From NCBI RefSeq assembly GCF_003669035.1, contig NZ_CP033070.1, forward strand, positions 2,480,001 through 2,544,000: a DNA stretch of 64,000 nt, written 5' to 3'. Origin of the DNA: Chryseobacterium sp. 3008163. GTDB lineage: Bacteria > Bacteroidota > Bacteroidia > Flavobacteriales > Weeksellaceae. The notes beneath the pieces were generated by a model. That model did not search any database and had not been told where the DNA came from. It worked only from the letters and a program-made list of their open reading frames with translations. A program made the translations under genes and the position numbers. Shown piece after piece: positions 7,032 through 38,605 of the stretch (position 1 is the first letter of the stretch; each line of letters starts with the position of its first letter).

Positions 7032-9746
7032 ATGAACAGAAAAATTTCCTTATTTCTCATGGTATTTTTCTCAGTCATTGCTTTCGCACAGAAAACAGTT
7101 TCCGGGAAGATCACAGATGAAGACGGTGTGGCCATCCCAAGTGCCAGTGTAACGGTAGAAGAGCCCGGCAAAGATGCCATCCTTGCATACGGAATTACCA
7201 ATTCTAAAGGAGAATATAAGGTGACATTCACTTCTGCAGAATCTAATGTAGACCTGAAGGTTAAAGCTTTTAACCAAAAACCTCTAACAAAACAAATCTC
7301 AAACAGCGATCAGACATTAACGTTCAAAATGCAGTCTGAGGCAACAGAAATCAAAGAAGTTCAGCTGAAAACCAAAATGATTACCTCAAGAGGTGATACT
7401 ATTGCTTATGATCTGAAAGCATTTGACAGCAAAAACGACCGTACTTTGGCTGACGTAATGAAGAAAATTCCGGGAATTGAAGTGAACGCAGACGGTTCTA
7501 TTCTTTATCAGGGAAATGCCATCAACAAATTCTACGTCAACGGAAAAGATTTAATGGAAGGCGGTTACGGAACGATTAACAATTCGCTTCCAAAAGATGC
7601 TGTACAAAAAGTTGAGGTTCTTGAAAATCACCAACCCGTAAAAATGCTTCAGGGGAAAATTCCTTCTGACGCAGCAGCGATCAACATTAAGCTTAAAAAC
7701 TCAGTAACGATGACCGGTCGAGGTGAAGTTGCAAGCGGTTTTGGAGACCCTTGGCTTTGGAATGTGAAACTAACACCTATGTTTTTTGGTCAGAAAAGCC
7801 AATGGGTAGTTAACTATAAGACAAACAATGTTGGTGAACAGGTAGAAAACGAAGGAAATATATTGGGAAGTTATAATCAATGGGAAGGCAGAAGAGGAAA
7901 TGCTTCGCAGAATAATTGGCTAAGTGTAGAAAATGCAAGTGTACCTAATCTTCCGGTAAGAAGGTATTTATTTAATAATGTTCATTACTTATCAGCAAAT
8001 TATTTAACAAATATTGATAAGAAAAAAGAATGGGAATTGAAGGTTAACGCCAACTATACCAACAATGCCGTAGAAAGAGAATCCACTACAAATGTAAATG
8101 ACTTTCAGCAAAACACATCTTATGGATACAGTTTCTTAAACAACTTTTATACAGACAAATTAAAAGGAGAATTAATTTTCACTAAAAATGCTAAAAAAGG
8201 TTTTTTCAAAAACGTAACTACTTTCTCACAATTCTGGAATGCAGATCGATCTAATGCAAATAGATATGATAATATTGCAGGTAACAGATTTGGAAGCGAG
8301 GCAGTGCAATCACCTACATCATCTTTTCAGAACTCATTGAGTACGATTATTCCATGGAAAGAGAAAATGGTTAATTTAAAATCTTATATTAACTATCAGG
8401 ATGATTCTCAAACATTGCAGATTACTCCGGCAAATTATCTTCAAATACCTTTCAGAGCAACTCCTACAGGTCCACTTACGACGATTCCTTTTGCTCCTGG
8501 AAGTATGGCATTGCAAAATTACAGAATGAAAACTTTAGACACTTCACATTCTGCAAACATTAGCTTCACTACAAAAGGATGGACTTTTACACCGGAAGTT
8601 GGTGTAGATTTTTCAACTGACAACCTGACAACAAACTTTGATGGTGCTACTACAGGATCAACTCCTGATTTTGGAAGTTCGCTTTATGAAAACAGCTTAA
8701 AGTTCACAGAATTTAAGCCTTTTGCTTCAGTTGGTATTAACTATAAATCTGATGCATGGAGCATATTTTCTAGTCTACCCGTAAATTTTAATAATATAAA
8801 AGCTGAAGATCCTTCTAGAAGTGTTAATAAAACTTTGAGTAGAACTACTTTCACACCCAATCTATTTGCTCAATATTCTTTTGCATCTTTCTTTAAAGCA
8901 AGTGTAAACGGAAATATCAGCAACAACTTTGGAGACATTCAAACTGCTTATGCAGGGTATATTCTTACAAGTCCTGGTGGATTTAACGTAATGAATGCTC
9001 AAAATCCAATTCCTCAAACAACTACAAAAAGCTTAGGGGGAAGATTAGAGTATAGAAATCCACTAAATAACTTATTCTTTAACGCCGGTTACAGAATAAG
9101 TGACGCTAAAAATAACTTATTGGCTTCAAGTTCAGTAAATGCTTCAGGATTTAGTGTTATTGAATATATTGAGAGAGAAAACAAAAGAGAAACGAATACT
9201 TTATACGGGGAAGTTGGAAAATATTTTCCAAAATTCAAAACAAATGCATCCGTTACGTTTAATCAAGGGACAACAATATCTCAGTCTATAAGAAATAATG
9301 ATCTTTTAGATAATAAGAATTTATCAAATGCTTTAGGATTCAAATTCAACAATACCTATTTCTCTTGGATGAGCGTTGATTTCAATTTCTCTAAAACTTG
9401 GAGCAACAGAACCAATGGAATCTTACAGGGAGATTTAGGTAAAGCGGAAGGTTATACGCACAACTTAAATGTATTCCTTTATCCATTAGAAAACCATACA
9501 TTAGGATTCTATTGGGATCAAATCAATTCAAGTCAGGCAAATGAAGAATATAAAAACGGATTCTTTGATTTGTCTTACCAATACAGCTGGGCAAGCAAAA
9601 AAGTTGATTTTGAATTGAAATGGATGAATATTGCAAACAGAAAAGTATTTGAAAGAATAGACGTTGGCGATGCTTCAATAAGCCAGACGACAATGTTATT
9701 AAGACCAAGCCAAGTGATGCTGGCAGTAAAATTCAACTTCAAATAA
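7032..9746 (+). CDS. TonB-dependent receptor-like outer-membrane beta-barrel protein
   Basis: A 904-residue outer-membrane protein. It has a signal peptide (MNRKISLFLMVFFSVIAFAQ) and a carboxypeptidase-like regulatory domain (TVSGKITDEDGVAIPSASV, about residues 22-100). A plug-like region follows (VMKKIPGIEVNADGSI, then FYVNGKDLMEGGYG, residues 140-185), then a long barrel of alternating aromatic and polar strands ending in VMLAVKFNFK with a terminal aromatic, as the BAM machinery requires. No TonB box or SusD partner is visible. Proteins of this type are often neighbours of GLPGLI proteins, and a GLPGLI gene lies 0.7 kb downstream. The substrate is unknown. A TATTTTTG -7-like box lies at 6926-6933. 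Confidence 0.88.
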   Translation: MNRKISLFLMVFFSVIAFAQKTVSGKITDEDGVAIPSASVTVEEPGKDAILAYGITNSKGEYKVTFTSAESNVDLKVKAFNQKPLTKQISNSDQTLTFKMQSEATEIKEVQLKTKMITSRGDTIAYDLKAFDSKNDRTLADVMKKIPGIEVNADGSILYQGNAINKFYVNGKDLMEGGYGTINNSLPKDAVQKVEVLENHQPVKMLQGKIPSDAAAINIKLKNSVTMTGRGEVASGFGDPWLWNVKLTPMFFGQKSQWVVNYKTNNVGEQVENEGNILGSYNQWEGRRGNASQNNWLSVENASVPNLPVRRYLFNNVHYLSANYLTNIDKKKEWELKVNANYTNNAVERESTTNVNDFQQNTSYGYSFLNNFYTDKLKGELIFTKNAKKGFFKNVTTFSQFWNADRSNANRYDNIAGNRFGSEAVQSPTSSFQNSLSTIIPWKEKMVNLKSYINYQDDSQTLQITPANYLQIPFRATPTGPLTTIPFAPGSMALQNYRMKTLDTSHSANISFTTKGWTFTPEVGVDFSTDNLTTNFDGATTGSTPDFGSSLYENSLKFTEFKPFASVGINYKSDAWSIFSSLPVNFNNIKAEDPSRSVNKTLSRTTFTPNLFAQYSFASFFKASVNGNISNNFGDIQTAYAGYILTSPGGFNVMNAQNPIPQTTTKSLGGRLEYRNPLNNLFFNAGYRISDAKNNLLASSSVNASGFSVIEYIERENKRETNTLYGEVGKYFPKFKTNASVTFNQGTTISQSIRNNDLLDNKNLSNALGFKFNNTYFSWMSVDFNFSKTWSNRTNGILQGDLGKAEGYTHNLNVFLYPLENHTLGFYWDQINSSQANEEYKNGFFDLSYQYSWASKKVDFELKWMNIANRKVFERIDVGDASISQTTMLLRPSQVMLAVKFNFK

Positions 9747-10414: not shown

Positions 10415-11307
10415 ATGAAAAATTTATTTTCAATACTATTTATCGCAATTTTCACAATTGCTAACGCACAAGAAGCCAAAGAAAGCTCAAACCGTTTCTT
10501 TTATGAGCTTACTTTCAAACCAAAAAAAGATTCTGCCAAGCTTGATAAAGTAATTACTGTGTTGGATATTACAGACAAAAACAGATCTGTTTATCAGGAT
10601 TACACAGTGATTTCTCAAGATTCTATCACAAAAGTAGAAATTGAAACAATGCAAAAAGCAGGGGTATACAAAGACCTTTCAAAATCTCTTAAAACACCGA
10701 AGTTTTCAGCAAGAATTCATAAATTCTATCCAAGCATGAAAGTTGAATATGTAGATAAAGTAGCCAACGGAATGACTCCGGTAAACATCGCTTACACTGA
10801 AGATTTGAAATTTAACTGGAAAATATTAAATGATAAACAGAAAATTGGTGAATACAATACCCAAAAAGCAACCACAGAATATGGTGGAAGAACTTGGACA
10901 GCTTGGTTTTCTTCAGACATTCCCTTTCAGGATGGACCTTATAAGTTCAGTGGACTTCCTGGTTTGATTGTAAAAATTGAAGATGCCGACAAAAATTACT
11001 CTTGGGTACTACAGGGAAATAAAAAATAAAAGAATACAACGAGTTTTCTTACATAGAAGGGTTAATGCAGGCGACAGGTGGAAAACCAAAGGAACTTACA
11101 AGAGAAAAGTTTGACAAAACATTTAACGATTTCAAAAAAGATCCTTTTTCTTCGGTAAGACCAATGATGACACAGGAAATATTATCGAGACCAGTTCCCG
11201 GCACAGACGGAACAGTAGGAGATATGATGAAAAAGCAGGAGAAAATGTATAAAGATTTTTATAATGCAAATGATAACCCTATTGAAAAGTCTCAAGACAA
11301 AAAATAA
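10415..11307 (+). pseudogene. GLPGLI family protein, single frameshift
   Basis: The gene encodes a secreted GLPGLI protein: signal peptide MKNLFSILFIAIFTIANAQ, then RFFYELTFKPK, and the defining FSGLPGLIVKIEDAD. The frame stops at 11027, right after an A6 run (11021-11026). Adding one A restores GNKKIKEYNEFSY and the frame then runs to 11307. The homologue at 32079 reads GNKKIDNYNEFSF at the same place, which fixes the break point. The repaired product is about 297 residues. The function of the family is unknown; it is common in Bacteroidetes near TonB-type receptors. The break is probably a sequencing error. Confidence 0.85.
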
Positions 11308-23020: not shown

Positions 23021-23941
23021 TTATATTAAATGAATTAAATTCTTTTTATCAAAATATTCAATAACTGCATTTGATTTAAAATTAATATTTAAATCTCTCA
23101 AAAACGGACCAACACAATAAATTTCATCAACATTCATAGACTCAATCTGTCCGATTAATTGATCTAACTGCAATGTCGTTGTTTCTCCGATTACAATATT
23201 CTCAATTATTGTCTGTTTTTTTGTAATAATATCAATATTTCTTACTGCACTTGCTATCGGAAACATAGGATCGTTTACTGTAATATTTTGTAGATAATCA
23301 TTCGTTTCATCAGCGACATGGTTTCTGAACCCAGAATGAAGCGCTGCTCTGCACATTTCTTTAGGCATAATATTAATATCTGCAGGACCTTGTTTTCCTA
23401 TAGTTTCTAGTACCCTTCTATGTCCGGATAACATCAACATTCTTCTCTTGCCAGAATCTATCGTACCAAAGTTCACGGCAATACCCATATCTTCAAATCG
23501 GGTAAAATATTCGTAATCTTCGTCTATATCAACATAAGTTAGAGCTACAGCTTCCGTATCACCTTCTGCTTCTTCTCTTAATTTTAATATATTAATAGAA
23601 TCTTCAAACCCGATTGCCTGTGATAAACAAACGGCATTAAGGTCTCCTAAACTTATTCCGCCACTAATAACAGGAGATGCTTTTTCTAATGAACAGATGT
23701 GTTCTGCAATTCCCAACATTCCGGCAAATAAACAGAATTTAATGATCTGAAAGTGTGAAAAATCAGTGTTGTTTTCCTGATCTTTTAATAATATTTTTAC
23801 AGGAATTCCTGTTAATAATGAGACTTCACCAATTCTTTTTCTTACAAAATCATTATAAGAGTATAATAATTTATAATCTTTCATGTCATGTGAAAGCACT
23901 GCAGGAGCAAAAAGTATAGCGTATCTTTTCATGGTCTTCAA
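23021..23941 (-). CDS. FabD-like acyltransferase domain protein
   Basis: A 306-residue protein with the malonyl-CoA:ACP transacylase layout. YAILFAPAV lies at the start, QIIKFCLFAGMLGIAEH before the nucleophile elbow, SGGISLGDLNAVCLSQAI with Ser as nucleophile (G-x-S-x-G), MLSGHRRVLE, and AALHSGFRNHV where FabD has its catalytic His. It is the last gene of the minus-strand RiPP locus. No acyl carrier protein is visible nearby, so it may load an acyl group on a peptide or on a carrier encoded elsewhere. The role in the pathway is inferred. Confidence 0.75.
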   Translation of the reverse strand: MKTMKRYAILFAPAVLSHDMKDYKLLYSYNDFVRKRIGEVSLLTGIPVKILLKDQENNTDFSHFQIIKFCLFAGMLGIAEHICSLEKASPVISGGISLGDLNAVCLSQAIGFEDSINILKLREEAEGDTEAVALTYVDIDEDYEYFTRFEDMGIAVNFGTIDSGKRRMLMLSGHRRVLETIGKQGPADINIMPKEMCRAALHSGFRNHVADETNDYLQNITVNDPMFPIASAVRNIDIITKKQTIIENIVIGETTTLQLDQLIGQIESMNVDEIYCVGPFLRDLNINFKSNAVIEYFDKKNLIHLI

Positions 23942-23989
23942 TGTTTAATAATTACTGCATATCATCATAACTTTTGAGTAAGGAAAAAA

Positions 23990-24810
23990 TTATGCTACAT
24001 ATTTTTCCTGAAGAATTTTTAATGGAGTTCCGTTAAAGTAATTGGCATACTTTTCCTTAAAAATGTGGTAATTTTCTTCGTTACTATCATCATTAAGATA
24101 AACATTCAGAAAACCGGATATTGGTTCGTTGTTTATAAGTTCTTTTTGATTTTTATAGATACTGAAAAGGTTATTTAATGCAATATCAAAGTCTGAATTT
24201 AAAAACATATAATTGAATATAAATTCGTTCAGGAAAAACTGCTTAAAATCGATAAATACATCTTCACTGATAATATGGAATGAGTTTTGTAATGGTTTTA
24301 ATTCTGTATTTCCGGTGAGTAAAAACCTTACTAATTCAAAAATTATGGTATTTGCTTCTTCTTTTTTATCCTGAAACATTAAGACCTTTAGTAGGTTTTG
24401 ATAATGAGAAATACTGTCAAAAACTAAAATCGGAAACTTTTCGTTGAGGTTTTTATTAATTTCAAGAGTATGATGTATCCTTTCAAAAGCTTTATCATAT
24501 TGATTAATTTTAAAAAATAATAAGATTTTGCTCTGTCGTAAGAATTAAAAATCAATTTCTTCAGTAAAACCTTGTCTTCCGGAATTTCGCACTGATAGCG
24601 TTCGCCAATTTCAAAGAAATATTCTGCTGCAGGAATATTGGTTCTTGCAAATTCTACGGCGTCGGTAAAATATTTAGCGATCATGTAAAGCGTTTGTCTA
24701 TCCTCAACAGGTAAATGGTCACGCAAAGAATTCATGTAAAAAAGAACATATCCACTTCTCTCGATAAGAGAATTTTTATGCCATTGAAGGCGGTCCTTAT
24801 GGTTAAGCAT
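23990..24810 (-). pseudogene. Unknown RiPP-locus protein, single frameshift
   Basis: Two frames, 24810-24424 and 24379-23990, join into one protein of about 273 residues if one base is added at 24508-24517 (T4/A6 runs). The bridge then reads SYYFLKINQYDKAFERIHH and continues through FPILVFDSISHYQNLLKVL. The product is helical and rich in aromatic and acidic residues, with TPR-like character, and lacks a signal peptide. Its start overlaps the 24803 gene by 8 bases, so it belongs to the operon. I recognise no family. The break is probably a sequencing error. Confidence 0.65.
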
Positions 24811-25459
24811 GTTTTGTATTGATTTTATATTTTAATAGAAGCATTAACTTGAAATTTTCAATAATAAGATCAAGGTTTTCTTTTGTGATCTTTCCCAACG
24901 TTTTGTATTGATGTAACGGTAAAAGGAAAGTAGTTCCAGAAGAAAATTTTTCAATTTTATCCTTGTAAAAGTCATAGTTTTTATAAGTTTCACTATCATC
25001 AATCGGGATAAAATCGATTTCGTCTTCTTGAATTAAAATTAATGAAGTATTGTAATCTTCTTCTAAAAAATCATACGTAATACCGTCATCAATAAGATTT
25101 AATAATTTTGAATTTTCTTTCTTTAAAAAATCATTCAATTTACTGTCATTGTGCGGTGAAGTCTGCTCCGAGTGAGATGAGCCGTTGTCATGATTAATTA
25201 ATAATCTTCTTACGTCTAAAAGATAATGTTCTTCGTTTTCTTTCTCGGGAATTATGATTTCGTAATGCATTAACATCGAAAAAATATTGTCTGGAAGCTT
25301 ATCAAATAGCTGTCTGTTCAGGATTTCGACTAATCCTGCATGAACTTTGATTCCCATTTTTTTTCTGCTGGAAAATAGAATTCTATATGCTTTTTTGTTG
25401 TCATCTTCTTCTTTGAAAATGTCGCTCAGAATTATATATTTTGATAGTTTAAATTCCAT
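24803..25459 (-). CDS. RiPP-locus protein sharing the N-terminal domain of the radical SAM enzyme
   Basis: A 218-residue protein of no named family. Its first 75 residues (FKLSKYIILSDIF, LVEILNRQLFDKLPDNIFSM, HYEIIIPEKENEE) parallel the start of the radical SAM protein at 26656 (YKLSHYLIFNDSL, EFHKLPNETLEKL, DRIIVNENEDE), so both seem to carry one domain, perhaps for leader-peptide binding. The remainder is acidic and ends in a hydrophobic helix (NLDLIIENFKLMLLLKYKI). It is coupled to the next gene and has one base between it and the P450. Confidence 0.65.
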   Translation of the reverse strand: MEFKLSKYIILSDIFKEEDDNKKAYRILFSSRKKMGIKVHAGLVEILNRQLFDKLPDNIFSMLMHYEIIIPEKENEEHYLLDVRRLLINHDNGSSHSEQTSPHNDSKLNDFLKKENSKLLNLIDDGITYDFLEEDYNTSLILIQEDEIDFIPIDDSETYKNYDFYKDKIEKFSSGTTFLLPLHQYKTLGKITKENLDLIIENFKLMLLLKYKINTKHA

Positions 25460-25460
25460 A

Positions 25461-26653
25461 TTATTTGGTATTTACTATTATTTTTTTTGGACCTCTTTGT
25501 ATGTATTGTTCATTTTTCCAAATCGGGTTTGAAATTTTTAGATCCTCTATATTTAAATTTTGAATAAGAACTTCAAAAGCGGTTGCAGACTGCAATTGTG
25601 CCAATCTTGCTCCAATACATCTGTAAGCTCCAAAACCATAACTTAAATGTTGAGGGCTTCTATCAATTTTTATCTCATCCGGATTTTGAAATTTATCTGG
25701 ATCTCTATTAGCAGAACCGGCACAGACAAGAAGTTGACAACCTGCGGAAATCTTTGTATCTCTTATAACAATGTCATTTTTTGTATACATCGTAAAAAAC
25801 TGAACTGGACTGTCATACCTCAATAGCTCGTCAATTGCATTTTGTATAAAATGAGGCTTCCCTTTTAATTCGTTGAAAACATGTGGATTGTTATATAAAG
25901 ATAGAAAACCATTGCCTAAAAAATTCATCATATTATCATGTCCCGCATAAAAAAGAAATATCAATAAACATAATGCGAAATCACTATTTTCGTCAGTCAC
26001 TTTACAAGATTCGATTAAAGCACTTGCCAAATCTTTGCCAAGAGAGTTTTCTTTTTTCTGAATAAATTTTCTTAGAAATAGAATAAAATCTTGCTCAGCC
26101 GGATCGGAAGTTTCCAGATTATTGATAAGTTTTAAATATCCTTTGTTTAGTTTAGAAACGACCTCCGTTAATTCTGCAATATCTTCTTCAGGAATCCCGA
26201 TGATTCTGCTTATTGTTTCGAACGTGTATTGATGTGCGAAATCATTTATAAAATCAAATTTCCCTTTTTCGAGGCATTCTTTTAGAAATTTTTCAGCTGA
26301 AGCTTTCATTTCGTCTTTTTCGAACTTCAAGTTTCTTGCAGCCAGACCATGTAATACGTTTTTTCGGTAAGGACTGTCTATTTCCGGAGCATAAGCATAC
26401 ATTGTTTTGGAAATCATACTTTTTTGTTTCCAAATAATGCATTTTGTGTTTCAGTATCTTGTCCCCAATGTGAAACAGAAGGATTTTGCATTAAAGAAAC
26501 GGCATCTTCATACTTCATAATCATCCATCTCATAGGAGAAATTCTATATAAAGGTGTTTTTTCTCTTAATTTTTTGTAATCTTTGTAAGGGTTCTTTTTA
26601 TTAAATAAATTAGGGATATCTCCTAAAAAGCTTTTCAGTAAACTGTTTTCCAT
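25461..26653 (-). pseudogene. Cytochrome P450, single frameshift
   Basis: A P450 of about 397 residues, split at the T6 run 26420-26425: ALFGNKK stops early, and one extra base gives ALFGNKKSMISKTMYAYAPE and the rest. Motifs: I-helix FYAGHDNMM, ExxR in IDELLRYDSP, and heme loop SYGFGAYRCIGARLAQ with the cysteine ligand. It should use O2 and outside electron donors; no ferredoxin lies nearby. Within this RiPP locus it probably oxidises the core peptide or an attached isoprenoid. The enzyme looks intact apart from the break, which is probably a sequencing error. Confidence 0.8.
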
Positions 26654-26655
26654 TT

Positions 26656-28062
26656 TTAACTATACTTCATGTTTTCAATTGCTAAACTCTGTTCAAAAGA
26701 ATCAAGAAGCTCAACTAATTCGGATTTGGTTTTGCTATGCATTTTAATTTCCTGCAATTGTATTTCTTCTTTTATGTTATACCTAGTTGTAGGACATGGC
26801 GGATTGCCTTCCATCCACGATTTTGGGCATGCACTACCACATATTGGAAATAATTTACATGAATTACATTGGGAATCTTTCTTTTCCCATACCTGATCAT
26901 ACCAGTTCAGATAACTTCTTTCATCGGATATGCTCTTATTAACGTTTCCTAATAAATATTTTGAATTTTTATATATATCTGTAAATGATACCTCCGTACA
27001 ACTGTATACGTTTCCATAGGTGTCATACATTTCAGAATCATTGCTTGTAAGTATACAGGTATTATGTTTTCTTTTAGTGATCTCATTGGTTTTATAGCCG
27101 TGTTTAATTTTCAGCAGTTCCCATTTCAATTTATAAAAAGCAAATTCTTCTTTTGAAAGTGATTGTTGGTGTGCGTTGTTTTGTGCCCAAGAATATATTG
27201 AAGCAAAATACAAATGTTCAATTTTATTATGCAGATTATCATTTGCCAGCTTTTTGATAAGTGGTTCTACGCCATCAAAATTTTTTGTGTCTACATTACA
27301 TCTTATGGTAATTTTTTGTGACCCCTCCGAATAAAAATCTGAATTTAAAATATTAGTGATATTCTTATAAATTAAATCAAAAGAACCTTCTTTGTCTTTT
27401 TTCAAATATCTATGATCGTCATGATAGCTGCCGATTCCATCAATTGTAATTTCAAATTGGCTAATCTTAAAATCTTCCACAAGCTCTTTGTAGATATTAA
27501 ATTTCAAACTCATGCCATTTGTAACTATGACCGAGTTTTTTAGTTCAATATTGAGATCTTCACAATGACGCTTAATGAGATTATTAAGTTTTCTCATTGT
27601 ATTCATACCTGTTAGTGGTTCCCCGCCAAACCAGCCAATCGCTAAAAATTTGTATTTAGAGTTCTTTTTTAATTTTTCAAATATTCTGTTAGCTATATTA
27701 TTGATTGTCTGATCAGATAAAAGATCTTTTTTATGAGCCTGCCCACAATAGTAACATCCAAGCTGGCACCAAGCACTGGGCTGAATAACTTCAAACAAAG
27801 TAGAATCTTTGCTGCTATGCTGTTTGTTTTCATTAATTACTGTAAGTAGCTCATCTTCATTTTCATTGACAATTATTCTGTCTGTTATTAGTTTTTCTAA
27901 TGTTTCATTTGGAAGTTTGTGGAACTCTTTTCTTTGTAACATACCCGCTAATAAATTTGATACTCTCAGCAACTTATTAGTAATTGTAGAATATATTAAA
28001 GCCTGATTTTTGTCAATAAGGCTGTCATTAAAAATTAGATAATGTGATAATTTATATTGCAT
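26656..28062 (-). CDS. Radical SAM/SPASM peptide maturase
   Basis: A 468-residue enzyme. Residues 1-75 form a domain shared with the 24803 protein; then the radical SAM core with CQLGCYYCGQ (CxxxCxxC, binding the SAM 4Fe-4S cluster) and GWFGGEPLTG; then a C-terminal SPASM region with the auxiliary-cluster cysteines (CNSCKLFPICGSACPKSW and PPCPTTRYN). Relatives modify ribosomal peptides by thioether or C-C crosslinks. It overlaps the M50 gene by 11 bases and is two bases from the P450. The likely substrate is the CW-tailed precursor pair at 31555 and 31846. Confidence 0.9.
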   Translation of the reverse strand: MQYKLSHYLIFNDSLIDKNQALIYSTITNKLLRVSNLLAGMLQRKEFHKLPNETLEKLITDRIIVNENEDELLTVINENKQHSSKDSTLFEVIQPSAWCQLGCYYCGQAHKKDLLSDQTINNIANRIFEKLKKNSKYKFLAIGWFGGEPLTGMNTMRKLNNLIKRHCEDLNIELKNSVIVTNGMSLKFNIYKELVEDFKISQFEITIDGIGSYHDDHRYLKKDKEGSFDLIYKNITNILNSDFYSEGSQKITIRCNVDTKNFDGVEPLIKKLANDNLHNKIEHLYFASIYSWAQNNAHQQSLSKEEFAFYKLKWELLKIKHGYKTNEITKRKHNTCILTSNDSEMYDTYGNVYSCTEVSFTDIYKNSKYLLGNVNKSISDERSYLNWYDQVWEKKDSQCNSCKLFPICGSACPKSWMEGNPPCPTTRYNIKEEIQLQEIKMHSKTKSELVELLDSFEQSLAIENMKYS

Positions 28063-29281
28063 AACGTTTTTTTAAATATTTTTTTAACCCCTGATAAAAA
28101 GAAATGATGAATATGATATAAAAAGCGAAGAAAGGCATCAAAGTAACAATGTTCTTTTTGTACCAATTAAAATCAGAAGGGAATTTTGTTATAATCTCAT
28201 GTACAAAAAGATAGAGGTTTTTTGGGAAATATATAATCGAATTATGCTGTCTTACTACCATGAATAATGCAAAATTTATCACTATAAGCAACGAAAAATT
28301 ACCATATAGTATTAAAAAAATCTCCTTTTTGGTTGGGCTAAAGCTTTTGTTGCGACCGATACACCATGCATAGAATTTTACAGAAGCTTTTGTTGCTCTT
28401 TCTCTTAAATTCGTAATATTGGTGCAATCGCTTAATGCCCAATATCCATCAAATCTAAGAAAGGGATTCAGATTAAAAAGAATACCAATTAAAATCAGAG
28501 AAATCAGGGATAAAATTTTAACATCATTATTGATTATAAAATAAATGCTAAGCAGAGCTGTTATAATTAACTGCAAATATATCCCGCCTAAATCGACAAT
28601 TAATCTTTCTTTTCTTCGTAACCTCCATGCATCGGACACGTCAGAAAAAAAAACAGGGGACATAATGTACAATCCAAATCCGATTTTACCGCTGTCGGCA
28701 CCATATTTTTCACATGCCGCTGAATGTCCGAATTCATGAAAAACCAGTGTCAGCAGGTTTATTATAATAAAGTTGACAAATAAATTCCCGTCTACTGCAT
28801 TGTAAACATTTGAGTAGTCTGCAAAAAGAAAGGGGATTATGGTAATGAAAAGAGAGGTCAACAATACCGGATAAAAAATTTTTTCACTGAAAACCGGAGT
28901 TAGAAATCTTGATACTTTCTTAACAATAGACCTGTTGAAGATTGTCATTTTCAACCATATATATTTGTTTTTAACTTTAATCCTGCTGTCATCATCATTT
29001 TCAAATATTCCATATCCAGATAAGTTTTTTTGAAATATTTTCAGTATCGTATCATCCGTTAATTTATACTTAGAGTTTTTATTATAGATTGTCTTGATTT
29101 CTTCTAAGGAATTGTTACCATCTATTAAATCTAACAATTCTATTACTTCTTTTGATATATATAGTTTTGAATTCCTATCTCCATCATCTATGCAGATAAG
29201 ATAGTTTTTTTCATCAAATTTTTTCCAAGTACAATTTTCATTTATTTTTAAAACCCTGGATAAATCAAGTACATTTTCCAT
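28052..29281 (-). CDS. M50-type membrane metalloprotease with PqqD-like N-terminus
   Basis: A 409-residue protein. The N-terminal 95 residues (YISKEVIELLDLIDGNNSLEEI) resemble a PqqD/RRE-type peptide-binding domain. Several membrane helices follow, with the zinc motif HEFGH in LLTLVFHEFGHSAACEKYG and the distal aspartate motif NPFLRFDGYWALSD. This layout fits M50 family proteases of RiPP loci, which remove leaders or help export. It shares one base with the terpene-synthase-like gene (start on its stop) and overlaps the radical SAM gene. Confidence 0.85.
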   Translation of the reverse strand: MENVLDLSRVLKINENCTWKKFDEKNYLICIDDGDRNSKLYISKEVIELLDLIDGNNSLEEIKTIYNKNSKYKLTDDTILKIFQKNLSGYGIFENDDDSRIKVKNKYIWLKMTIFNRSIVKKVSRFLTPVFSEKIFYPVLLTSLFITIIPFLFADYSNVYNAVDGNLFVNFIIINLLTLVFHEFGHSAACEKYGADSGKIGFGLYIMSPVFFSDVSDAWRLRRKERLIVDLGGIYLQLIITALLSIYFIINNDVKILSLISLILIGILFNLNPFLRFDGYWALSDCTNITNLRERATKASVKFYAWCIGRNKSFSPTKKEIFLILYGNFSLLIVINFALFMVVRQHNSIIYFPKNLYLFVHEIITKFPSDFNWYKKNIVTLMPFFAFYIIFIISFYQGLKKYLKKRYAI

Positions 29282-31281
29282 TATTTAACTTTTAATTTTG
29301 AAAACCTCCTAAATGCTCTGAGTGCTACACCAGTAGAAAATAAGGCATACTGTTCTCCCGTAACACTATTACCTGCGCCAAACATATTTTTATTGAATTT
29401 ATGATTAGATTTCCATTGCTTAATATTTGGATTTGGGATTACCTGATAGTAAGTGTTGTCAAATGATCCATTTGATAATTGATTTTCCATAAGCCAATTA
29501 CATAGTTTATCAGCTTTTTCCGAAAACTTATCAAAATATTTTCTTTCAAGAGATACAGTATCTAAAACAAGTGCTGAATAAAAAGCGCTTTCCTGTTTAC
29601 TGACCGGACAGCTAAAGCTCCCGTTGTCATTTTGCAAATCAAATAATATCTTTAATTTATCTTCTATCATATCATAAGCCTCTTTTTCCATGATCATTCC
29701 CTGAATAATAAAAGAAGTAGGATATATAGGAGATGTCCACCAATAAGCATCCCATATACCGTCTTTATTTGTATTGGAGAAAATATACGTTCTTAATTTC
29801 TGGATATCAATATGCTCTTCTATTTTTTTTGACACTACAAAATAATATGCTAAAGCACTTACACATACATGTGACTGAACCCAGCCTTTAATATTACTTT
29901 TTGTTAAATTCAACCTCCCTAATAATTCTGGATCATTATCTGAATAAGTACTGAATCCTCCGTTATTATTCTGTCCGGTCTGCCATTTTTCTATTAAATG
30001 AAAATCTTTTTTATTTTTCACCACATTAATAAGAGAGCAAGTAGTTGAATCATAATCATAGGACCAATCGGTATTGTACCCCCATAAATTATTTTGATGT
30101 GATTTTTTAAGGAATTCAATAGATTTATCCTTTTCAGCATCAGCATCATCTAAAAATAAAGAAATGAATCCGGTTGCCCAAGAATTACTGAATCCCTGTT
30201 TATTTAAATTTTCGTACCAGCTTCCGTTCTTAAATTGAAGATCATTAATATATTTTTTTGAGATGGAAATAGCATTTGGTAAATTATTTGAATTTAATTT
30301 ATCCACATTTTTCAATTTGTTTTTTATTAATACATCTATTCTATATGCTTCTATTTGAACTTTATAAAAAACAATTGTGTTTAACATTGACGACAACAGT
30401 TTTTTGTATTTAATCAATTTCGAGTCATATTTATCACACAGGTCAATTGCTTTTTTTAAATAATCACCTGATAAAGAAAGTAATTTCTCTAATTCTCCTG
30501 ATGAAATTAAAAGCTTCTCAAGTTGATCATTATTATAATCAGTGATATTAAGATTTTTTGATATCAACCAATTATTTAAAAATACATGTGCCAAATTATT
30601 TTTCTGAAAAATCAAATCCTTTTTAAAATCCTCAATATCGTCCTGAATACATCTTCCTATTGAAAAATAATTATTGATCTCTATGAGATCATTATACATT
30701 TCTTTATTTTCATTCTTAGTATAAAATTCAAAAACATCTACCGCTACGTTTGTAAAACTGCATTTTCCAATACATAAAGTTTCATATTCCTTGATCGTAA
30801 GAGATATATTGTATACACTATCCATCTGGATACTTTCTAAAAAGTCTTTATTCCTTTTACCCCATGTTTCCCAAAAATCATGATTCTTCCCAAAGTAAAA
30901 ACCCAATGTAATTAATGCCTGCTCATGATAGATGTGCGACTGTAAAATCTGCATCTTATACATATGTTTTTTCAAATTTTCATCTTCTATAATGGTATCC
31001 TGATCTGCTAATGAATCCAGACAAAGAAGATATCTAAAATAGAAGTAACCTGAATTACATATATCATTTATTGCTTTTTTATTTTTTATGCCATATATAT
31101 CTTTAAAAAATTTGGGCATAATAAAATAGAACTTGTGGTCTAAAAAATTTTCTGGAAAGACAATTTGTTTGAGAGTAAGTGGAATATTTACATTATCTAT
31201 CTGATTATATATATGATTTACTGAGGAACTTAAATCTTTTTCATCTAGATTAATCTGAAGTTTATTGGTTATATTTAACAT
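29281..31281 (-). CDS. Two-domain isoprenoid/terpene synthase-like protein
   Basis: About 666 residues (ATG at 31281; another at 31311 would add ten hydrophobic residues). The N-terminal half looks like a class I isoprenoid synthase: LLCLDSLADQDTI as a first Asp motif, ETLCIGKCSFTNVAV, and IGRCIQDDIEDFKKDL with a full DDxxD. The C-terminal half is an alpha/alpha toroid with QW-like repeats (LQFKNGSWY, QNNNGGFSTY, NKDGIWDAYW, LQNDNGSFSCP, NQLSNGSFDN). It carries a DYDSTT motif at the place of the class II DxDD acid. It should form or cyclise a prenyl chain. It lies directly behind the precursor genes and the terminator at 31415. Confidence 0.7.
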   Translation of the reverse strand: MLNITNKLQINLDEKDLSSSVNHIYNQIDNVNIPLTLKQIVFPENFLDHKFYFIMPKFFKDIYGIKNKKAINDICNSGYFYFRYLLCLDSLADQDTIIEDENLKKHMYKMQILQSHIYHEQALITLGFYFGKNHDFWETWGKRNKDFLESIQMDSVYNISLTIKEYETLCIGKCSFTNVAVDVFEFYTKNENKEMYNDLIEINNYFSIGRCIQDDIEDFKKDLIFQKNNLAHVFLNNWLISKNLNITDYNNDQLEKLLISSGELEKLLSLSGDYLKKAIDLCDKYDSKLIKYKKLLSSMLNTIVFYKVQIEAYRIDVLIKNKLKNVDKLNSNNLPNAISISKKYINDLQFKNGSWYENLNKQGFSNSWATGFISLFLDDADAEKDKSIEFLKKSHQNNLWGYNTDWSYDYDSTTCSLINVVKNKKDFHLIEKWQTGQNNNGGFSTYSDNDPELLGRLNLTKSNIKGWVQSHVCVSALAYYFVVSKKIEEHIDIQKLRTYIFSNTNKDGIWDAYWWTSPIYPTSFIIQGMIMEKEAYDMIEDKLKILFDLQNDNGSFSCPVSKQESAFYSALVLDTVSLERKYFDKFSEKADKLCNWLMENQLSNGSFDNTYYQVIPNPNIKQWKSNHKFNKNMFGAGNSVTGEQYALFSTGVALRAFRRFSKLKVK

Positions 31282-31414
31282 GATTATTATTGAGAATATA
31301 ATTAACAACAATTCACACTACTAAAATGTGAGTCATTAAAATGAGTTTATTATTGCTGGTTATTTTATAACGCTTGAAAGACCAATCAGAAGAATATTAT
31401 TCGCTTATTGGTAT

Positions 31415-31442
31415 ATAAAAAAATACCCTCTGACTGAGGGCT
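31415..31442 (-). terminator. Leaky terminator or attenuator after the precursor genes
   Basis: On the minus strand CCCTC-AGTCA-GAGGG is followed by TATTTTTTTAT. It sits between the second precursor gene and the synthase gene, a usual place to favour precursor over enzyme transcripts. Confidence 0.65.
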
Positions 31443-31554
31443 AAACTATAAGTTTATAGAGTCACTATATATCGATAAACCCTAATTTCAAATACGCTTT
31501 TTAAAATCACTTATTTACATTTTTCAGCTGCTAGAGCTTAAGCTTATTTTTGAA

Positions 31555-31737
31555 TTATTCGCCACCCCACCAGCAAATGTCGTTACCAATTGGTCCTTCA
31601 ATCGAACTAGGAGTAGTAACCCCTGCCATTTCCAATCTGCTTTCCAGTACTTCAATTTTGAAAAGTTCCAACATTTCTTGATCTGAAATATTCTCAACAT
31701 TTGAGATCTCGTTTATTTTTTGCTCATTACTGCTCAT
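31555..31737 (-). CDS. RiPP precursor peptide, CWWGGE tail
   Basis: A 60-residue peptide. The leader holds ENISDQEMLELFKIEVLESR followed by LEMA, nearly identical to that of the 31846 peptide. The core that follows (GVTTPSSIEGPIGND) ends in ICWWGGE, with the only cysteine of the peptide next to two tryptophans. Conserved leader with variable core, small size and position in front of radical SAM, P450 and protease genes identify it as a ribosomal natural-product precursor. It matches no class I can name. Confidence 0.85.
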   Translation of the reverse strand: MSSNEQKINEISNVENISDQEMLELFKIEVLESRLEMAGVTTPSSIEGPIGNDICWWGGE

Positions 31738-31784
31738 AAATATTAATATAATTAATTTGTCATTACTGATCTTAAGGAAAAACT

Positions 31785-31818
31785 AAAGGCTTCTTAGATA
31801 TTGTATTTAGAAGCCTTT
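31785..31818. terminator. Hairpin between the two precursor genes
   Basis: AAAGGCTTCT and AGAAGCCTTT form a perfect 10-bp stem around a 14-base loop, with T-rich flanks on both strands. It lies in the 108-base gap between the precursor genes and can act as an attenuator or RNA-stabilising structure. Confidence 0.7.
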
Positions 31819-31845
31819 ATTTTTAATGTTGTCTGTTTGCAGGGA

Positions 31846-32037
31846 TTATCCTATCCAACAAACTTTGTTGCCATCTGCTGCTTCAATTTGACTTGGAGCA
31901 ATTGCGGCCATTTCTAATCTATTTTCTAGTTCTTCAACTTTGAAAAGTTCTAGCATTTCTTGTTCTGAAATGTTTTCAATTTGCATGTTTACATCATTGT
32001 TCATGTTTTCGTTCATTTTTTGGTTGTTTTGATTCAT
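31846..32037 (-). CDS. RiPP precursor peptide, CWIG tail
   Basis: A 63-residue peptide with an Asn/Met-rich start, then the shared leader ENISEQEMLELFKVEELENR and LEMA, and a core AIAPSQIEAADGNKVCWIG. The single cysteine precedes the tryptophan at the C-terminus, as in the sister peptide at 31555. The two peptides share the sequence up to the LEMA site, where leader cleavage is plausible. It is the promoter-proximal of the two, 41 bases after a GLPGLI gene on the same strand. Confidence 0.85.
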   Translation of the reverse strand: MNQNNQKMNENMNNDVNMQIENISEQEMLELFKVEELENRLEMAAIAPSQIEAADGNKVCWIG

Positions 32038-34281: not shown

Positions 34282-34473
34282 ATGAAAACAGAAAAATCAA
34301 AATTTGAAAAATTTTTAAAAAAACCTATGTTAAACAAAGATTTATTAAATAGAATCAAAGGGGGTGTACAAGATGCAGAAATTGTTGCAGGTCCTATATC
34401 TTCAAACTGTGGAAATTGGTACACAATAAGTGGAGAATGTAGAAAAGATGGTAAAAGCTGTTGGCCTTTTTAA
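34282..34473 (+). CDS. Lanthipeptide-type precursor with GG leader
   Basis: A 63-residue peptide. The leader is basic and helical and ends LLNRIKGG, a double-glycine site for a C39 protease/ABC exporter. The core (VQDAEIVAGPISSNCGNWY, then TISGECRKDGKSCWPF) has three cysteines, four serines and one or two threonines, including SSNC and SGEC pairs suited to lanthionine rings. The DoxX-like gene ends 50 bases before it, the LanM gene starts 157 bases after it, and a hairpin follows. Confidence 0.8.
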   Translation: MKTEKSKFEKFLKKPMLNKDLLNRIKGGVQDAEIVAGPISSNCGNWYTISGECRKDGKSCWPF

Positions 34474-34500
34474 TTAAATAACTTTTTAAAATAGCAAAAA

Positions 34501-34534
34501 CGGGCTACTCATAAATTGAGATAGCCTTTTTTTT
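34501..34534 (+). terminator. Terminator or attenuator after the precursor
   Basis: GGCTA-C-TCA pairs with TGA-GA-TAGCC around a short AT loop and is followed by eight T. It separates the precursor from the LanM gene. Confidence 0.65.
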
Positions 34535-34629
34535 AACCCGTTGACAAGAGGAATCTCTTCCTATACTCATCTCAAATTTATTTCTAGAATTCTTTCGCAA
34601 AATATACCACGAAAATTTTTAATCAAAAT

Positions 34630-37393
34630 ATGGAATACAATTCACTCATTACCAATAAAAAAAGAAACCTTATTACCAGTGGGACTTATGAAAAAACTTT
34701 GTTTTTAAATTTGTTTACCGACTGGCTAGATGAAGCGCATGAAAGAATAATAGTAGTAGAAGGATTTGTAAATAGTGAGTCCATAAAATTGTCATTTAAC
34801 TCACTATATGATATTATCATAGAAATTGCGGAAAGAGCGTTGTTTGTTGAATATAAAGTTTTCGAAGAAAATATAAAAACATCTGTAAAATCTACTGCGA
34901 AGCTCTTATGTAAATTTGAAAAAAAACTTTTATCTGTTAAATACAGAAAATATTTATTAGATGAATATCCGGAACTTTTTAGATTGGTCTTTATAAATAT
35001 AAATTATTTCATTACTAATCTTAATGATATAATATCTTATTACATTAATGATTTTAATGAAATCAAGAAGATATTTGATCTTAAAAATTCTGGAATAGAA
35101 TATATCAAAATGGGATTGGGTGACAGACACAATAACAATAAAAGCACTACTTTATTACAATTAGAAGGAGAAAAAAAATAATTTTTAAACCTCGAGATTT
35201 AGGTGTTGAAGTGTGTTTTTCTAATTTCCTGTCTTATTATAATAAATCTTGTGATACCAATATATATTTGCCACAAACTTTATATAGAAAAAAATATTCT
35301 TGGACAGAATTTATAGAACAGTCCAATAATTCAAATCGAAATGCTAACTTATATAAAGAAATAGGACATATACTGTGCATTCTGTATTTTTTGAATGGAA
35401 CTGATTTCCACTATGAAAACATAATTGTAAATAATAAAAAAGGATTAGTTCTAATAGATTGTGAGTCAATTTTATACCCTTTCGACACCATAGCAAATGA
35501 GCACAATGTCTTGTCTATCGGACTTTTATCAAAAAAAATCAAAGTTGGAGATCATCAATTAGATTTCGGAGGGTTAAATATAAATGAAAATCTACCTCAA
35601 GAGTTTCCTGTATTAAAAGAAAGTATTCGTGTTGAGAATGGTGAAATCAAATTATTTAGTGAAAAAAGCAAATTGATAAAACCCAATAATTTGCAATCTA
35701 ATGAACCAGATAATATCAATGATAATATTGAAGAGATATTAGCCGGGTTCGAGAGATCTTATTTATTCTTAATGAAGAATAAGAAAAAGATTACACCATT
35801 TTTTAATAAAGACAACTTCAATTTTCCAATCAGATTTTTACTTAGAAATACTTTTCTTTATGCTCATGTTTTACATGAATCAATATCTCCAATCCTATTA
35901 ACGGATAGAAACGACAGGATTATTTTTATTGAACAATTAGATAAACCTTTTAATGAAAATAGTAATTTATTAGATTCTGAAGTTGCCGATATTCTTAACA
36001 ACGATATACCCTATTATTATAGTAATTTAAGATCTAGAGCTCTGCAAAGCAGCAGTGGATTTCAAGAAAAAAATTCTTTAAAAAAAGCCCATTAGATTCA
36101 CTTTTATATAAATTGAATAACAAAATATCTAAAGAAGATTTGCAACGACAATTACTACTAATCAAATATAATTTTGCTCAAAATACCACAGGAAATTCGC
36201 GTAATATTTTCACAAAAAAGCATATTTCAGAAAATATTAAATTAACATATGATTTTTTTAAAAATTTAATCGGAAAAAATGTAACATATTTAACGCTTCA
36301 GGAATCATATGATTTACCTAATCAATATAATTTTGAATATAGCAATAATGATATAATTAATGGTAAGTTTGGAGATTTGTTATTTTTAGCAGAAGCAAAT
36401 AAAAAATTTAATAATTCTTATATCGATAAAACTATCTTTCGAATTTATGATGAAAACATAAAGTATCTTTATAATTCTGATTATTTAGGCATGGCGGGCA
36501 TCGGGGGATCTATATATTTTCTATTACGAATGTATAAAATATATAATGATAATAAATTTATCAATGATGCATTAAACTACATCAATTCTTTAGATTTAAT
36601 AAATATTATTGAAAGTTCGAAGAATAATGGAATTATTTATGGAAGAGCGGGTTTACTCATTGCGCTAATTGAATTAGAAAAATTAACTGACTCTTTAGTT
36701 ATACATGAATTAGTACAATGTAATTATCATAAATTAATTTCATCTGCAATTAAATGTCCAGAAGGTATTTACTGGATGTCAGAATTCCACGATAAACCAC
36801 TATGTGGAGTTGCTCATGGGTCTTCGGGAATAATTTTAGCACTATCAAAATATTTTAAACAATCCAGAAATTTAGAATGTAAAAATATAATAAAACAAGC
36901 AGTACTGTTTGAGAACACATTTTATTGTGATAAAAATAAGAACTGGAAAGATAATAGAACTTTTATTTCTAAAGGACAAGAATTCTCCTCCTTTGGTTGG
37001 TCTCACGGAAGTCCCGGAATAGGTTTGGTTCGATTAGAATTAATTGAATCAGATATATTTCTTTCAGAAGAATTTTTGAATATTTTAAAAACAGATTTAA
37101 AAAACTGCGTTGAATCAACATTCAAAAACGGTCTGAAGGGAAAAGATTCTTTGATATATGGGAAATATGGAAATGTTGAACTTCTTGTGCGATTTTCCAG
37201 CTACACTAATAATCTTGAGATTTTGAATGAAATTGAAGGCTATCTAAATTCATTCAATAATTTATATTTTATCAAACAAAATAAAGGTCTTATTATACCT
37301 GGTCTTTTTAATGGAGTATCTGGGTATGGTTATCAATTGTTATTTTTTAACAACTACATAAAAAACTCAATTCTAACTTTCGACTGTCATTAA
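34630..37393 (+). pseudogene. Class II lanthipeptide synthetase LanM, two frameshifts, zinc ligands absent
   Basis: Three frames join into one LanM of about 921 residues when one A is added at 35171-35178 and one at 36080-36086. The dehydratase motifs are intact: GDRHNNNKS, IIFKPRDLG, NGTDFHYENII and LIDCESILYP. The LanC-like cyclase has CGVAHGSSGI and PGLFNGVSGYGY, but the zinc-site motifs are altered. GWSHGSPGI has Ser where the Cys ligand belongs, and SLIYGKYGNVELL has Ile-Tyr for the usual Cys-His. These are clean codons, not frame errors. It should dehydrate the 34282 peptide; ring closure by this enzyme is doubtful. Confidence 0.85.
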
Positions 37394-37404
37394 AATATAA
37401 TTAA

Positions 37405-38605
37405 ATGAAATCTAGGCCTCCATTCCCCAATTACCTTCAGCCTGATGCGGTCCCACATGTCTGAGAATAGTCAGCAAACATTACGGCAAAAGCATTTCCT
37501 TACAGCAAATCCGTAACCTTTCAGAAACGACAAGAGAATGAAGCAGTCTGCTTGGTTTGAGCGATGCTGCTGAAGATTTAGGCTTCCGTTCTTTGGGAGT
37601 GCAGATCGATTTTAATACATTGGCTGAAGAAGTTCCTTTCCCTTGTATTGTACACTGGAACAAAAATCATTTTGTAGTTGTCTATAAAATCGATAAAAAT
37701 AGCATTGTTTACATTTCAGATCCGAGTTATGGTTTAATTACCTACACAAGGGAAGAATTTATCAAACGATGGATCGGCGAAAATGCCAATGAAAATACAG
37801 AAGAAGGAATCGTATTGATCCTTGAAACCACACCTGCGTTTTTCCAAACTGAATTTGACGATCAGGAAAGTAAAGCTAGTTTTTCTTTTCTTTCAAAGCA
37901 TCTGCTTAAGTATAAATCATTGATCGTTCAGTTGGCGGTGGGTTTACTGGCGGGAAGTTTACTTTCTTTGATTCTTCCTTTCCTTACCCAAAGTATTGTG
38001 GATGTGGGGATTCAGAATCAGGATCTTAATTTTATCTATCTGGTTTTATTGGCTCAGGTTATGCTTTTTCTTGGCAGAATGGGAATTGAGGTCATCCGAA
38101 GCTGGATTTTGCTTCACCTTTCCACCCGAATCAATATCTCGATTATCTCAGATTTCTTTATTAAATTAATGAAGCTTCCCATCAGTTTCTTTGATACGAG
38201 AATGACGGGGGATATCATGCAAAGAATCAACGATCATCATAGAATTGAGCAGCTTTTGACCAATTCTTCTTTGAATACATTATTCTCATTAGTCAATTTG
38301 ATCATTTTCAGTATCGTTTTACTATTCTATGATTACAGATTATTTGTTGTTTATCTGGTTGGTGCGATTTTATATATCGGATGGATCACTTTTTTCCTCG
38401 GAAAACGAAAAGAACTCGATTACAAAAGATTTTCACAGGTTTCCCAAGAACAAAGCAAAGTTATTGAGCTCATCAACGGTATGCAGGAAATCAAAATGCA
38501 CAACGCCGAAAAACAGAAACGTTGGGATTGAGAGTTTCTTCAGGTTAAATTATTTAAGCTCAGAATAAAATCTCTTTCACTTGAGCAATGGCAAAGTTTA
38601 TTTAG
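37405..38605 (+). pseudogene. LanT-type C39 peptidase/ABC exporter, ruined
   Basis: Starts MKSRPPFPNYLQPD, then shifts frame into CGPTCLRIVSKHYGKS with the C39 catalytic Cys at 37446. It meets an in-frame TGA at 37539, continues SLLGLSDAAEDLGFRSLGVQ and NKNHFVVVYKI with the His, then the membrane domain (FFDTRMTGDIMQRINDHHRI). A second TGA at 38529 interrupts WD-E; the frame ends after SLSLEQWQS. The entire ATPase domain is absent. Unlike other breaks here, these are substitutions and deletions, so the gene is dead. Its composition is less AT-rich than the LanM gene. Confidence 0.85.

What the first reader, a model, noticed from the sequence alone, without database searches (positions are those of the whole stretch)
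23021..32037. Undescribed RiPP locus combining CW-tailed precursors, radical SAM, P450, M50 protease and isoprenoid-synthase chemistry
Seven overlapping or closely spaced minus-strand genes follow two short peptides that share a leader (ENIS-QEMLELFK ... RLEMA) and end in a lone Cys next to Trp (CWWGGE, CWIG). The enzymes are those of peptide maturation (radical SAM/SPASM, P450, M50 protease). Added to them are a two-domain terpene-synthase-like protein and a FabD-like acyltransferase. I know of no named RiPP class with this set. A peptide carrying a crosslinked or prenylated Cys-Trp tail is a reasonable hypothesis.
Basis: partly seen in the sequence, partly recalled or inferred. Interest (0 to 1): 0.92.

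Follow-up and report, generated by a model that had tools for sequence, protein, structure and literature searches.

The report
Terpene-tailed, ring-bearing peptide gene cluster
This bacterium carries genes that probably build a small peptide whose last tryptophan gets a cyclised terpene and whose neighbouring cysteine is probably tied into a ring, a branch of a recently described peptide class in which the cysteines follow a strikingly simple sequence rule.

Summary
In detail: two CW-tailed precursors stand before a terpene-synthase-like enzyme, M50 protease, radical SAM/SPASM, P450, a short rSAM paralogue, an unknown protein and a weak FabD relative. The interpretation needs three corrections. 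(1) The class is in print: the synthase has the architecture of ChrPC (trans-prenyl-synthase plus MstE-like cyclase), which prenylates a RiPP Trp and cyclises the chain; I know that paper (Hubrich 2024) only through a 2026 review. (2) The acceptor is probably Trp, not Cys: 60 of 63 precursors in related loci carry a core Trp, 26 of them without Cys. (3) The Cys is probably tied to Asn/Asp three residues upstream, not to Trp: in 81 Trp-late precursors 140 of 145 Cys have N/D at -3 (shuffles: mean 25, maximum 39). The rule follows this rSAM clade into loci without the synthase (38 of 42 Cys) and fails beside other rSAMs (11 of 117) or none (3 of 41). New here: a C-terminal [N/D]xxCW sublineage and an rSAM substrate code. 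Chemistry is inferred; nothing was measured. P450 and one other gene are frameshifted, probably assembly error, since ftsW is split too.

The parts
31846..32037 (-). precursor peptide A (63 aa), leader ...LFKVEELENRLE, tail NKVCWIG
   Evidence: homologue P0046
31855..31869 (-). N-x-x-C-W motif of precursor A
31555..31737 (-). precursor peptide B (60 aa), leader ...LFKIEVLESRLE, tail NDICWWGGE
   Evidence: homologue P0047
31570..31584 (-). N-x-x-C-W motif of precursor B
29281..31281 (-). fused prenyltransferase-terpene cyclase (PC enzyme, 666 aa): residues 6-304 trans-prenyl-synthase fold, 330-664 MstE-like class II terpene cyclase
28052..29281 (-). RRE-like domain fused to M50 protease (409 aa), HEFGH; residues 9-96 like lasso-peptide RRE TbiB1, core like SpoIVFB/RseP
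26656..28062 (-). radical SAM/SPASM maturase (468 aa), CQLGCYYC; in the clade associated with [N/D]xxC precursors
26414..26653 (-). cytochrome P450, first part (frame broken)
25461..26417 (-). cytochrome P450, second part, with heme-site motif FGAYRCIG
24803..25459 (-). short rSAM paralogue (218 aa), resembling only the N-terminal domain of the rSAM; the Parachryseolinea copy (387 aa) keeps SPASM-like cysteines but no CxxxCxxC
24424..24810 (-). uncharacterised protein, first part (frame broken; 271 aa intact in L005, no Pfam match)
23990..24379 (-). uncharacterised protein, second part
23021..23941 (-). weak relative of malonyl-CoA:ACP transacylase; found in 2 of 4 loci of the sublineage, membership in the pathway uncertain

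Best explanation
A RiPP cluster with two maturation chemistries on one short C-terminal motif. The leader (L-F-x-[VI]-E-x-L-E-x-R-L-E) is held by the RRE-like domain of the M50 protease and probably by the N-terminal domains of the rSAM and its short paralogue. The radical SAM/SPASM enzyme joins each Cys to the Asn/Asp three residues before it, probably as a thioether ring [N/D]-x-x-C. The fused enzyme transfers a prenyl chain (C10-C20 in the characterised relative) to the neighbouring Trp with its trans-prenyl-synthase domain, then folds it into rings with its class II cyclase domain, with D411 as the acid. The P450 oxidises the product and the M50 protease cuts it from the leader. Shown by computation: gene set, folds, conserved catalytic residues, leader, Trp rule, [N/D]xxC rule and its link to the rSAM clade. 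Inferred: thioether nature, prenyl length, P450 target, cut site, order of steps, bioactivity.
Against: No product or enzyme assay. Three of 63 precursors lack Trp, in two loci whose enzyme ORF has no cyclase. Trp, even as CW, is not exclusive to the PC enzyme: 4 of 15 cores beside close rSAMs and 26 of 27 beside more distant rSAMs contain Trp without a PC gene in the 1.5 kb flanks. Three Gly-rich loci have an rSAM inside the 16-row clade but only 7 of 13 Cys fit, and most of their precursors have no Cys. Distant rSAMs beside PC enzymes do not follow the rule (1 of 13). Five of 145 Cys break it. The rSAM scores below the cut-off of every named maturase. By the contig-length proxy the P450 is found with only 12 of 23 enzymes on contigs of at least 9 kb. 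P450 and one other gene are frameshifted here.
Confidence: 0.6

Rival explanations
1. The prenyl acceptor is the cysteine (as in eukaryotic CaaX prenylation), and Trp is only a recognition residue.
For: Cys stands directly before Trp in 66 of 81 Trp-late precursors. Enzymes lacking the cyclase occur with Cys peptides that have no Trp.
Against: 19 of 32 Trp-early homologues and 26 of 60 Trp-bearing precursors in read loci have no Cys. All characterised trans-prenyl-synthase-like peptide prenyltransferases target Trp (PMC13290415). The Cys obey a rule tied to the rSAM.
Confidence: 0.1
2. rSAM or P450 joins Cys directly to the adjacent Trp.
For: CW adjacency in 66 of 81. CW units also recur in peptides beside more distant rSAMs without a PC gene in the flanks (for example QNDCWGFGGTQTCSGNECWSYN), so CW may itself be an rSAM target in that group.
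Against: The [N/D]xxC rule holds equally for Cys far from Trp (98 of 103 Cys in multi-Cys cores) and for peptides without Trp beside close rSAMs (L121-L123, L128, L129: 30 of 30 Cys). 15 of 81 tails have no CW. The group with other CW peptides lies outside the clade of this rSAM and does not follow the rule.
Confidence: 0.15
3. Pearlin-like scaffold pathway: the long variable spacer is only a carrier, and the M50 protease releases a very small product made of the last residues ([N/D]xxCW).
For: Conservation is confined to the leader and the last five residues or so; Trp is the last residue in 37 of 81 and has at most three residues after it in 72 of 81; spacer 14-53 residues. M50 proteases TglG and TmoG cut modified residues from the C-terminus of scaffold peptides (PMC10885120 passages).
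Against: No PEARL-type amino-acid ligase was seen among the operon proteins scanned. Window tails have extra residues after CW. EpeP is an M50 protease thought to serve cleavage and export of an epipeptide.
Confidence: 0.25
4. The cluster in this genome is decaying and makes nothing.
For: P450 and one other gene are split. An outer-membrane-type protein present in L005 and L058 after the unknown gene is missing here.
Against: Essential ftsW is split in the same window, and so is a lanthionine synthetase (DUF4135 in two frames). Precursors, PC enzyme, rSAM and M50 are intact.
Confidence: 0.15

Closest known systems
ChrPC and NctPC, fused prenyltransferase-terpene cyclase RiPP maturases (Hubrich et al. 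2024, Chem 10:3224; known to me only through review PMC13290415)
   Same: ChrPC: trans-prenyl-synthase-like N domain fused to a cyclase domain, Trp of a RiPP modified (NctPC: other prenyltransferase fold, MstE-like cyclase)
   Different: here Trp is C-terminal in [N/D]xxCW, and rSAM, P450 and a short rSAM paralogue are added; whether that paper covers this branch I could not check
ComQ/ComX and PalQ/PalX Trp prenylation (PMC10853753 passages, PMC13290415)
   Same: isoprenoid-synthase fold, Trp acceptor; PalX has a C-terminal Trp
   Different: no fused cyclase described for ComQ or PalQ; other leaders (PalX has an NHLP leader)
MstE monodomain class II terpene cyclase (6sbb and related entries)
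   Different: MstE acts on a prenylated dihydroxybenzoate (entry titles), not on a peptide
Ranthipeptide maturase PapB and other SPASM rSAM maturases (TIGR04463, Clo7bot, CefB)
   Same: rSAM/SPASM; fixed spacing between Cys and a partner residue (for PapB recalled, not read here)
   Different: [N/D]-x-x-C with the partner before the Cys; scores far below every equivalog cut-off
SpoIVFB/RseP site-2 proteases; EpeP, TglG and TmoG in RiPPs
   Same: M50 core with HExxH
   Different: here fused to an N-terminal RRE-like domain

Membership tests
Fused prenyltransferase-cyclase (ChrPC-type) RiPP maturase | N domain with trans-prenyl-synthase fold | tested here: met
Fused prenyltransferase-cyclase (ChrPC-type) RiPP maturase | Asp-rich motifs and Gln just before the second one | tested here: met
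   D89, D93, D214, D215, D218 invariant in 32; Q213 in the window protein, though Leu at that place in P0006 and P0007 and varied in the remote members
Fused prenyltransferase-cyclase (ChrPC-type) RiPP maturase | MstE-like class II cyclase domain with catalytic Asp | tested here: met
Fused prenyltransferase-cyclase (ChrPC-type) RiPP maturase | precursor with core Trp beside the gene | tested here: met
   2 of 2 in the window; 60 of 63 across 37 loci
Fused prenyltransferase-cyclase (ChrPC-type) RiPP maturase | Trp carries a cyclised prenyl group | not testable with these tools
   needs mass spectrometry or NMR
ComQ/ComX | free-standing prenyltransferase without cyclase | tested here: not met
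   fused cyclase domain
rSAM thioether RiPPs (ranthipeptides/sactipeptides) | rSAM with CxxxCxxC and SPASM | tested here: met
   Radical_SAM 1.3e-09, TIGR04085 SPASM 1.2e-09, CQLGCYYC in the sequence
rSAM thioether RiPPs (ranthipeptides/sactipeptides) | Cys at fixed distance from a partner residue | tested here: met
   140 of 145 Cys with N/D at -3
rSAM thioether RiPPs (ranthipeptides/sactipeptides) | member of a named maturase equivalog | tested here: not met
   best TIGR04463 178.4 bits against cut-off 525; PapB 91.5 against 340
rSAM thioether RiPPs (ranthipeptides/sactipeptides) | thioether in the product | not testable with these tools
   needs product analysis
Daptides | daptide M50 equivalog NF041824 | tested here: not met
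   140.9 bits against cut-off 300
Pearlins | PEARL amino-acid ligase in the cluster | tested here: inconclusive
   no such family among the operon proteins scanned; genes outside the operon were not all scanned

The most novel reading that the evidence does not exclude
A hitherto unrecognised RiPP sublineage in which one five-residue tail, [N/D]xxCW, carries both a radical-SAM-made Cys-to-Asn/Asp ring and, on the next residue, a polycyclic terpene built by a fused prenyltransferase-cyclase. It is then oxidised by a P450 and released by an RRE-bearing M50 protease as a very small terpenoid cyclopeptide. The two codes are modular: this rSAM clade reads [N/D]xxC and the fused enzyme reads Trp, on one shared leader type.
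Probability: 0.3. Interest if true: 0.85.

Novelty: new variant of a known kind. Interest (0 to 1): 0.66.

Why it matters
It gives a simple, falsifiable substrate code for a clade of radical SAM maturases that matches no named equivalog (Asn/Asp exactly three residues before nearly every Cys), in two leader contexts (GG-type and ELExRLE) and with or without the terpene enzyme. It also points to peptides that should combine a Cys crosslink and a cyclic terpene on adjacent residues, which would give compact enzymes for late-stage peptide lipidation and ring formation. If the product is only the tail, it joins RiPP chemistry to indole-terpenoid chemistry.

Tried and rejected
Considered and set aside. 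(a) Cys prenylation and (b) direct Cys-Trp crosslink: see rivals. (c) Quorum-sensing ComX-type locus: the enzyme is a fusion with a cyclase, and none of the operon proteins scanned matched a kinase family. (d) FabD relative as a sign of fatty acylation: the match is weak and it is in 2 of 4 loci. Its GISLG and LHSGF stretches look like the Ser/His pair of the family; that comparison is recalled and read by eye.

Led nowhere. The rSAM has no PDB relative by sequence at E 0.001. Genome searches around G070 and G282 gave no new member of the sublineage. The Gln said to mark Trp recognition did not separate enzymes with and without cyclase: a Gln is kept at -3 of the second motif in the cyclase-free ones. 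RRE218 hits to full rSAMs came from a profile widened by iteration; I rely instead.

Mended counts. In one search I first cut four cores to 30 residues and wrongly scored them as Trp-free; one search used full cores. The peptides had been listed by a filter that asked for two Cys and one [N/D]xxC, which favours the rule; one search repeats the count by leader motif alone, without that filter (38 of 42 Cys in 15 cores from 9 loci; 11 of 117 in 27 cores from 11 loci; L141 gave no peptide), and those numbers are used. That recount also showed CW peptides in the group outside the clade, told in the Against line; I lowered the best reading from 0.62 to 0.60 and raised the Cys-Trp rival from 0.12 to 0.15 for it. 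The Trp-early/Trp-late split (first Trp at or before residue 9 after the leader, or later) and the cut between 36 close and 8 remote enzymes are mine. Co-occurrence rests on equal contig lengths, a proxy that misses true pairs: L058 has a P450 that the proxy did not score. The 113 of 113 Trp figure comes from a search seeded with CW precursors; the fairer figure is 60 of 63, although that profile too was started from the window's precursor. Of the four homologues added to L010 and L011, P0122 has the contig length of L010; the loci of the other three were not read. The 41 Cys without rSAM include L008, whose contig ends 1.1 kb after the M50 gene; without it the count is 3 of 39. Loci dropped before counts as near-copies: L068, L023, L072, L073, L082. 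Eight of 45 loci had no precursor found: five on contigs under 5 kb, two with a broken enzyme gene, one remote planctomycete.

Paper searches (all ten used) listed no paper on an rSAM-bearing terpene RiPP, but the key paper is not held, so I do not claim that it is unpublished. Also looked at by passages without use: PMC12715784, PMC11002830, PMC13252029.
Full report
What is there. On the minus strand, two short peptides (31846-32037 and 31555-31737) precede a chain of closely spaced genes: a 666-residue two-domain enzyme, an M50 protease, a radical SAM/SPASM enzyme, a cytochrome P450, a short protein resembling the rSAM N-terminus, an unknown protein and a weak malonyl-transacylase relative. 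The genome is one contig of 4.56 Mb. The nearest cluster found is in Chryseobacterium sp. ISL-6 (78% identity for the enzyme). In that relative the P450 and the unknown protein are intact, whereas here each is split between two frames. The essential gene ftsW is split in the same window (two pieces matching profile positions 3-122 and 146-352), and a lanthionine synthetase too, so I take these breaks as probable assembly errors.

Precursors. In 46 aligned precursors the leader core F-x-x-x-x-L-E-x-R-x-E is invariant. After removal of near-copies, 37 of 45 loci with the enzyme family have such a precursor and 41 of 45 have the M50 protease. Of 63 precursors, 60 carry a Trp after the leader against 21 expected from composition, and 26 of these 60 have no Cys. 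In 55 the first Trp stands at positions 3-8, and in the five distinct cores of the window's sublineage at 19-20. The three without Trp are in two loci whose enzyme ORF has no cyclase domain (L067, L074). In Chryseobacterium, 9 of 173 genomes have a match to the enzyme alignment (in one of them, G523, it is a cyclase-free ORF), and all nine are among the 14 with a precursor match. Of the other five, three have a cyclase-free enzyme with M50, one has an M50 with other neighbours, and one was not looked at.

The CW sublineage. A database search seeded with its six precursors gave 113 homologues: 66 with a late CW, 15 with a late Trp but no CW, 32 with an early Trp. In the 81 Trp-late ones, Trp is the last residue in 37 and has at most three residues after it in 72; the spacer from the leader varies from 14 to 53 residues; the conserved tail is N/D-x-x-C-W. 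In a tree of 57 enzymes, the 14 labelled Trp-late (four by their locus, ten by the contig-length proxy) fall in one 20-row clade with support 100/100; the other six rows of that clade have no assigned precursor. In the four loci of this kind that I could read (window, L005, L007, L058), rSAM, P450, rSAM paralogue and unknown protein are present in 4 of 4, and P450 was found in none of the other 41. By equal contig length, 20 of the 36 closest enzymes share a contig with a Trp-late precursor and 13 with a close P450, against 0 of the 8 remote ones for both.

A substrate rule for the radical SAM enzyme. In the Trp-late cores, 140 of 145 Cys have Asn or Asp exactly three residues before them. The other offsets from -6 to +6 show 4-31%, and shuffles that keep Cys and Trp in place give a mean of 24.7 and a maximum of 39. 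After thinning to 25 cores below 50% identity the count is 47 of 50. The two Trp-early loci with a close rSAM obey the rule (6 of 6 Cys in L010 and L011; 12 of 12 with homologues added). Trp-early precursors in loci without rSAM do not (3 of 41), nor those with distant rSAMs (1 of 13). A scan of 22 loci called rSAM-less for CxxxCxxC proteins of at least 280 aa gave three hits: the M50 of L014, an ORF at the far edge of L016, and a HemN-type radical SAM protein in L022. As a further test I searched the rSAM in 173 Chryseobacterium genomes (27 with E at or below 1e-30). Nine relatives with 39-42% identity have no PC enzyme next to them; 8 of these 9 genomes have none at all at the threshold. They sit beside peptides with GG-type or ELEERLE leaders, and 38 of 42 Cys obey the rule; beside eleven relatives at 35-38% identity it is 11 of 117. 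In a tree of 27 rSAMs the 13 rule-followers lie in a 16-row clade (99/98) that also holds three Gly-rich loci, where only 7 of 13 Cys fit. The simplest reading is that this rSAM clade joins Cys to Asn/Asp at -3, probably as a thioether. Among its better NCBIfam matches is the ranthipeptide maturase PapB, a thioether-former as I recall. The bond type is inference.

Results that cut the other way. Trp is not exclusive to the terpene enzyme: 4 of 15 cores beside close rSAMs and 26 of 27 beside the more distant ones contain Trp, many of them as CW, with no PC gene in the 1.5 kb flanks. In those distant groups CW may be an rSAM target of its own. In the window's clade, Trp-free peptides beside close rSAMs follow the [N/D]xxC rule in 30 of 30 Cys (L121-L123, L128, L129), and many Trp precursors with the PC enzyme have no rSAM, so I keep the two rules apart.

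Verdict. The class of terpene-bearing RiPPs is already in print. What is new, as far as the held papers show, is a sublineage with a C-terminal [N/D]xxCW tail that pairs that chemistry with a radical SAM enzyme and, in the loci read, a P450, and a sharp [N/D]xxC rule that travels with the rSAM clade.

Noticed in passing
L116 8968-10041 (window's own genome, G000:C1 about 1812967-1814040); also L113, L114, L115, L117, L074: Free-standing prenyl-synthase-like enzyme (270-317 aa, no cyclase) plus M50 and short peptides EFT[FC]YC..P.PC-like, with a related leader but no Trp. Characterised relatives are said to use Trp, so the acceptor here may be Tyr or Cys.
   Followed up: partly
L118 6672-9574: Leader-type peptide without Trp next to an M50-like protein and a 328-aa protein without Pfam match: the leader and protease seem shared by several RiPP chemistries.
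   Followed up: no
L121-L129: Chryseobacterium rSAM loci with short Cys peptides obeying [N/D]xxC without the terpene enzyme; L128 and L129 have tandem copies with core like GDNYCCTGSD.C.
   Followed up: yes
L130-L138, L142: More distant rSAMs beside GG-leader peptides with repeated CW units such as SGNECWSYN, which do not follow [N/D]xxC; N often stands at -2 of the Cys instead.
   Followed up: no
L069, L070, L079: Gly-rich precursors (NGG repeats, up to 76 residues after the leader), most starting LGSW, with PC enzyme, rSAM and M50; mostly without Cys, so the rSAM may do something else there.
   Followed up: no
34282-38531: A neighbouring lanthipeptide-like cluster: KGG-leader peptide ending CRKDGKSCWPF (weak plantaricin C match) and a LanM-type synthetase broken over three ORFs (DUF4135, DUF4135, LANC_like).
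   Followed up: partly
54221-55461 and elsewhere in the window: ftsW split into two ORFs, and further splits or apparent splits (34630-37393; 10415-11307): this assembly probably carries many one-base indel errors.
   Followed up: partly
L005 17330-19993, L058 957-3608, L010 14561-17023: A large outer-membrane-type protein (CarboxypepD_reg and Plug weak matches for L005; the other two by eye) beside the cluster in relatives but absent from it here; a similar-looking ORF at 7032-9746 and GLPGLI-like proteins at 10415 and 32079 are in the window.
   Followed up: no
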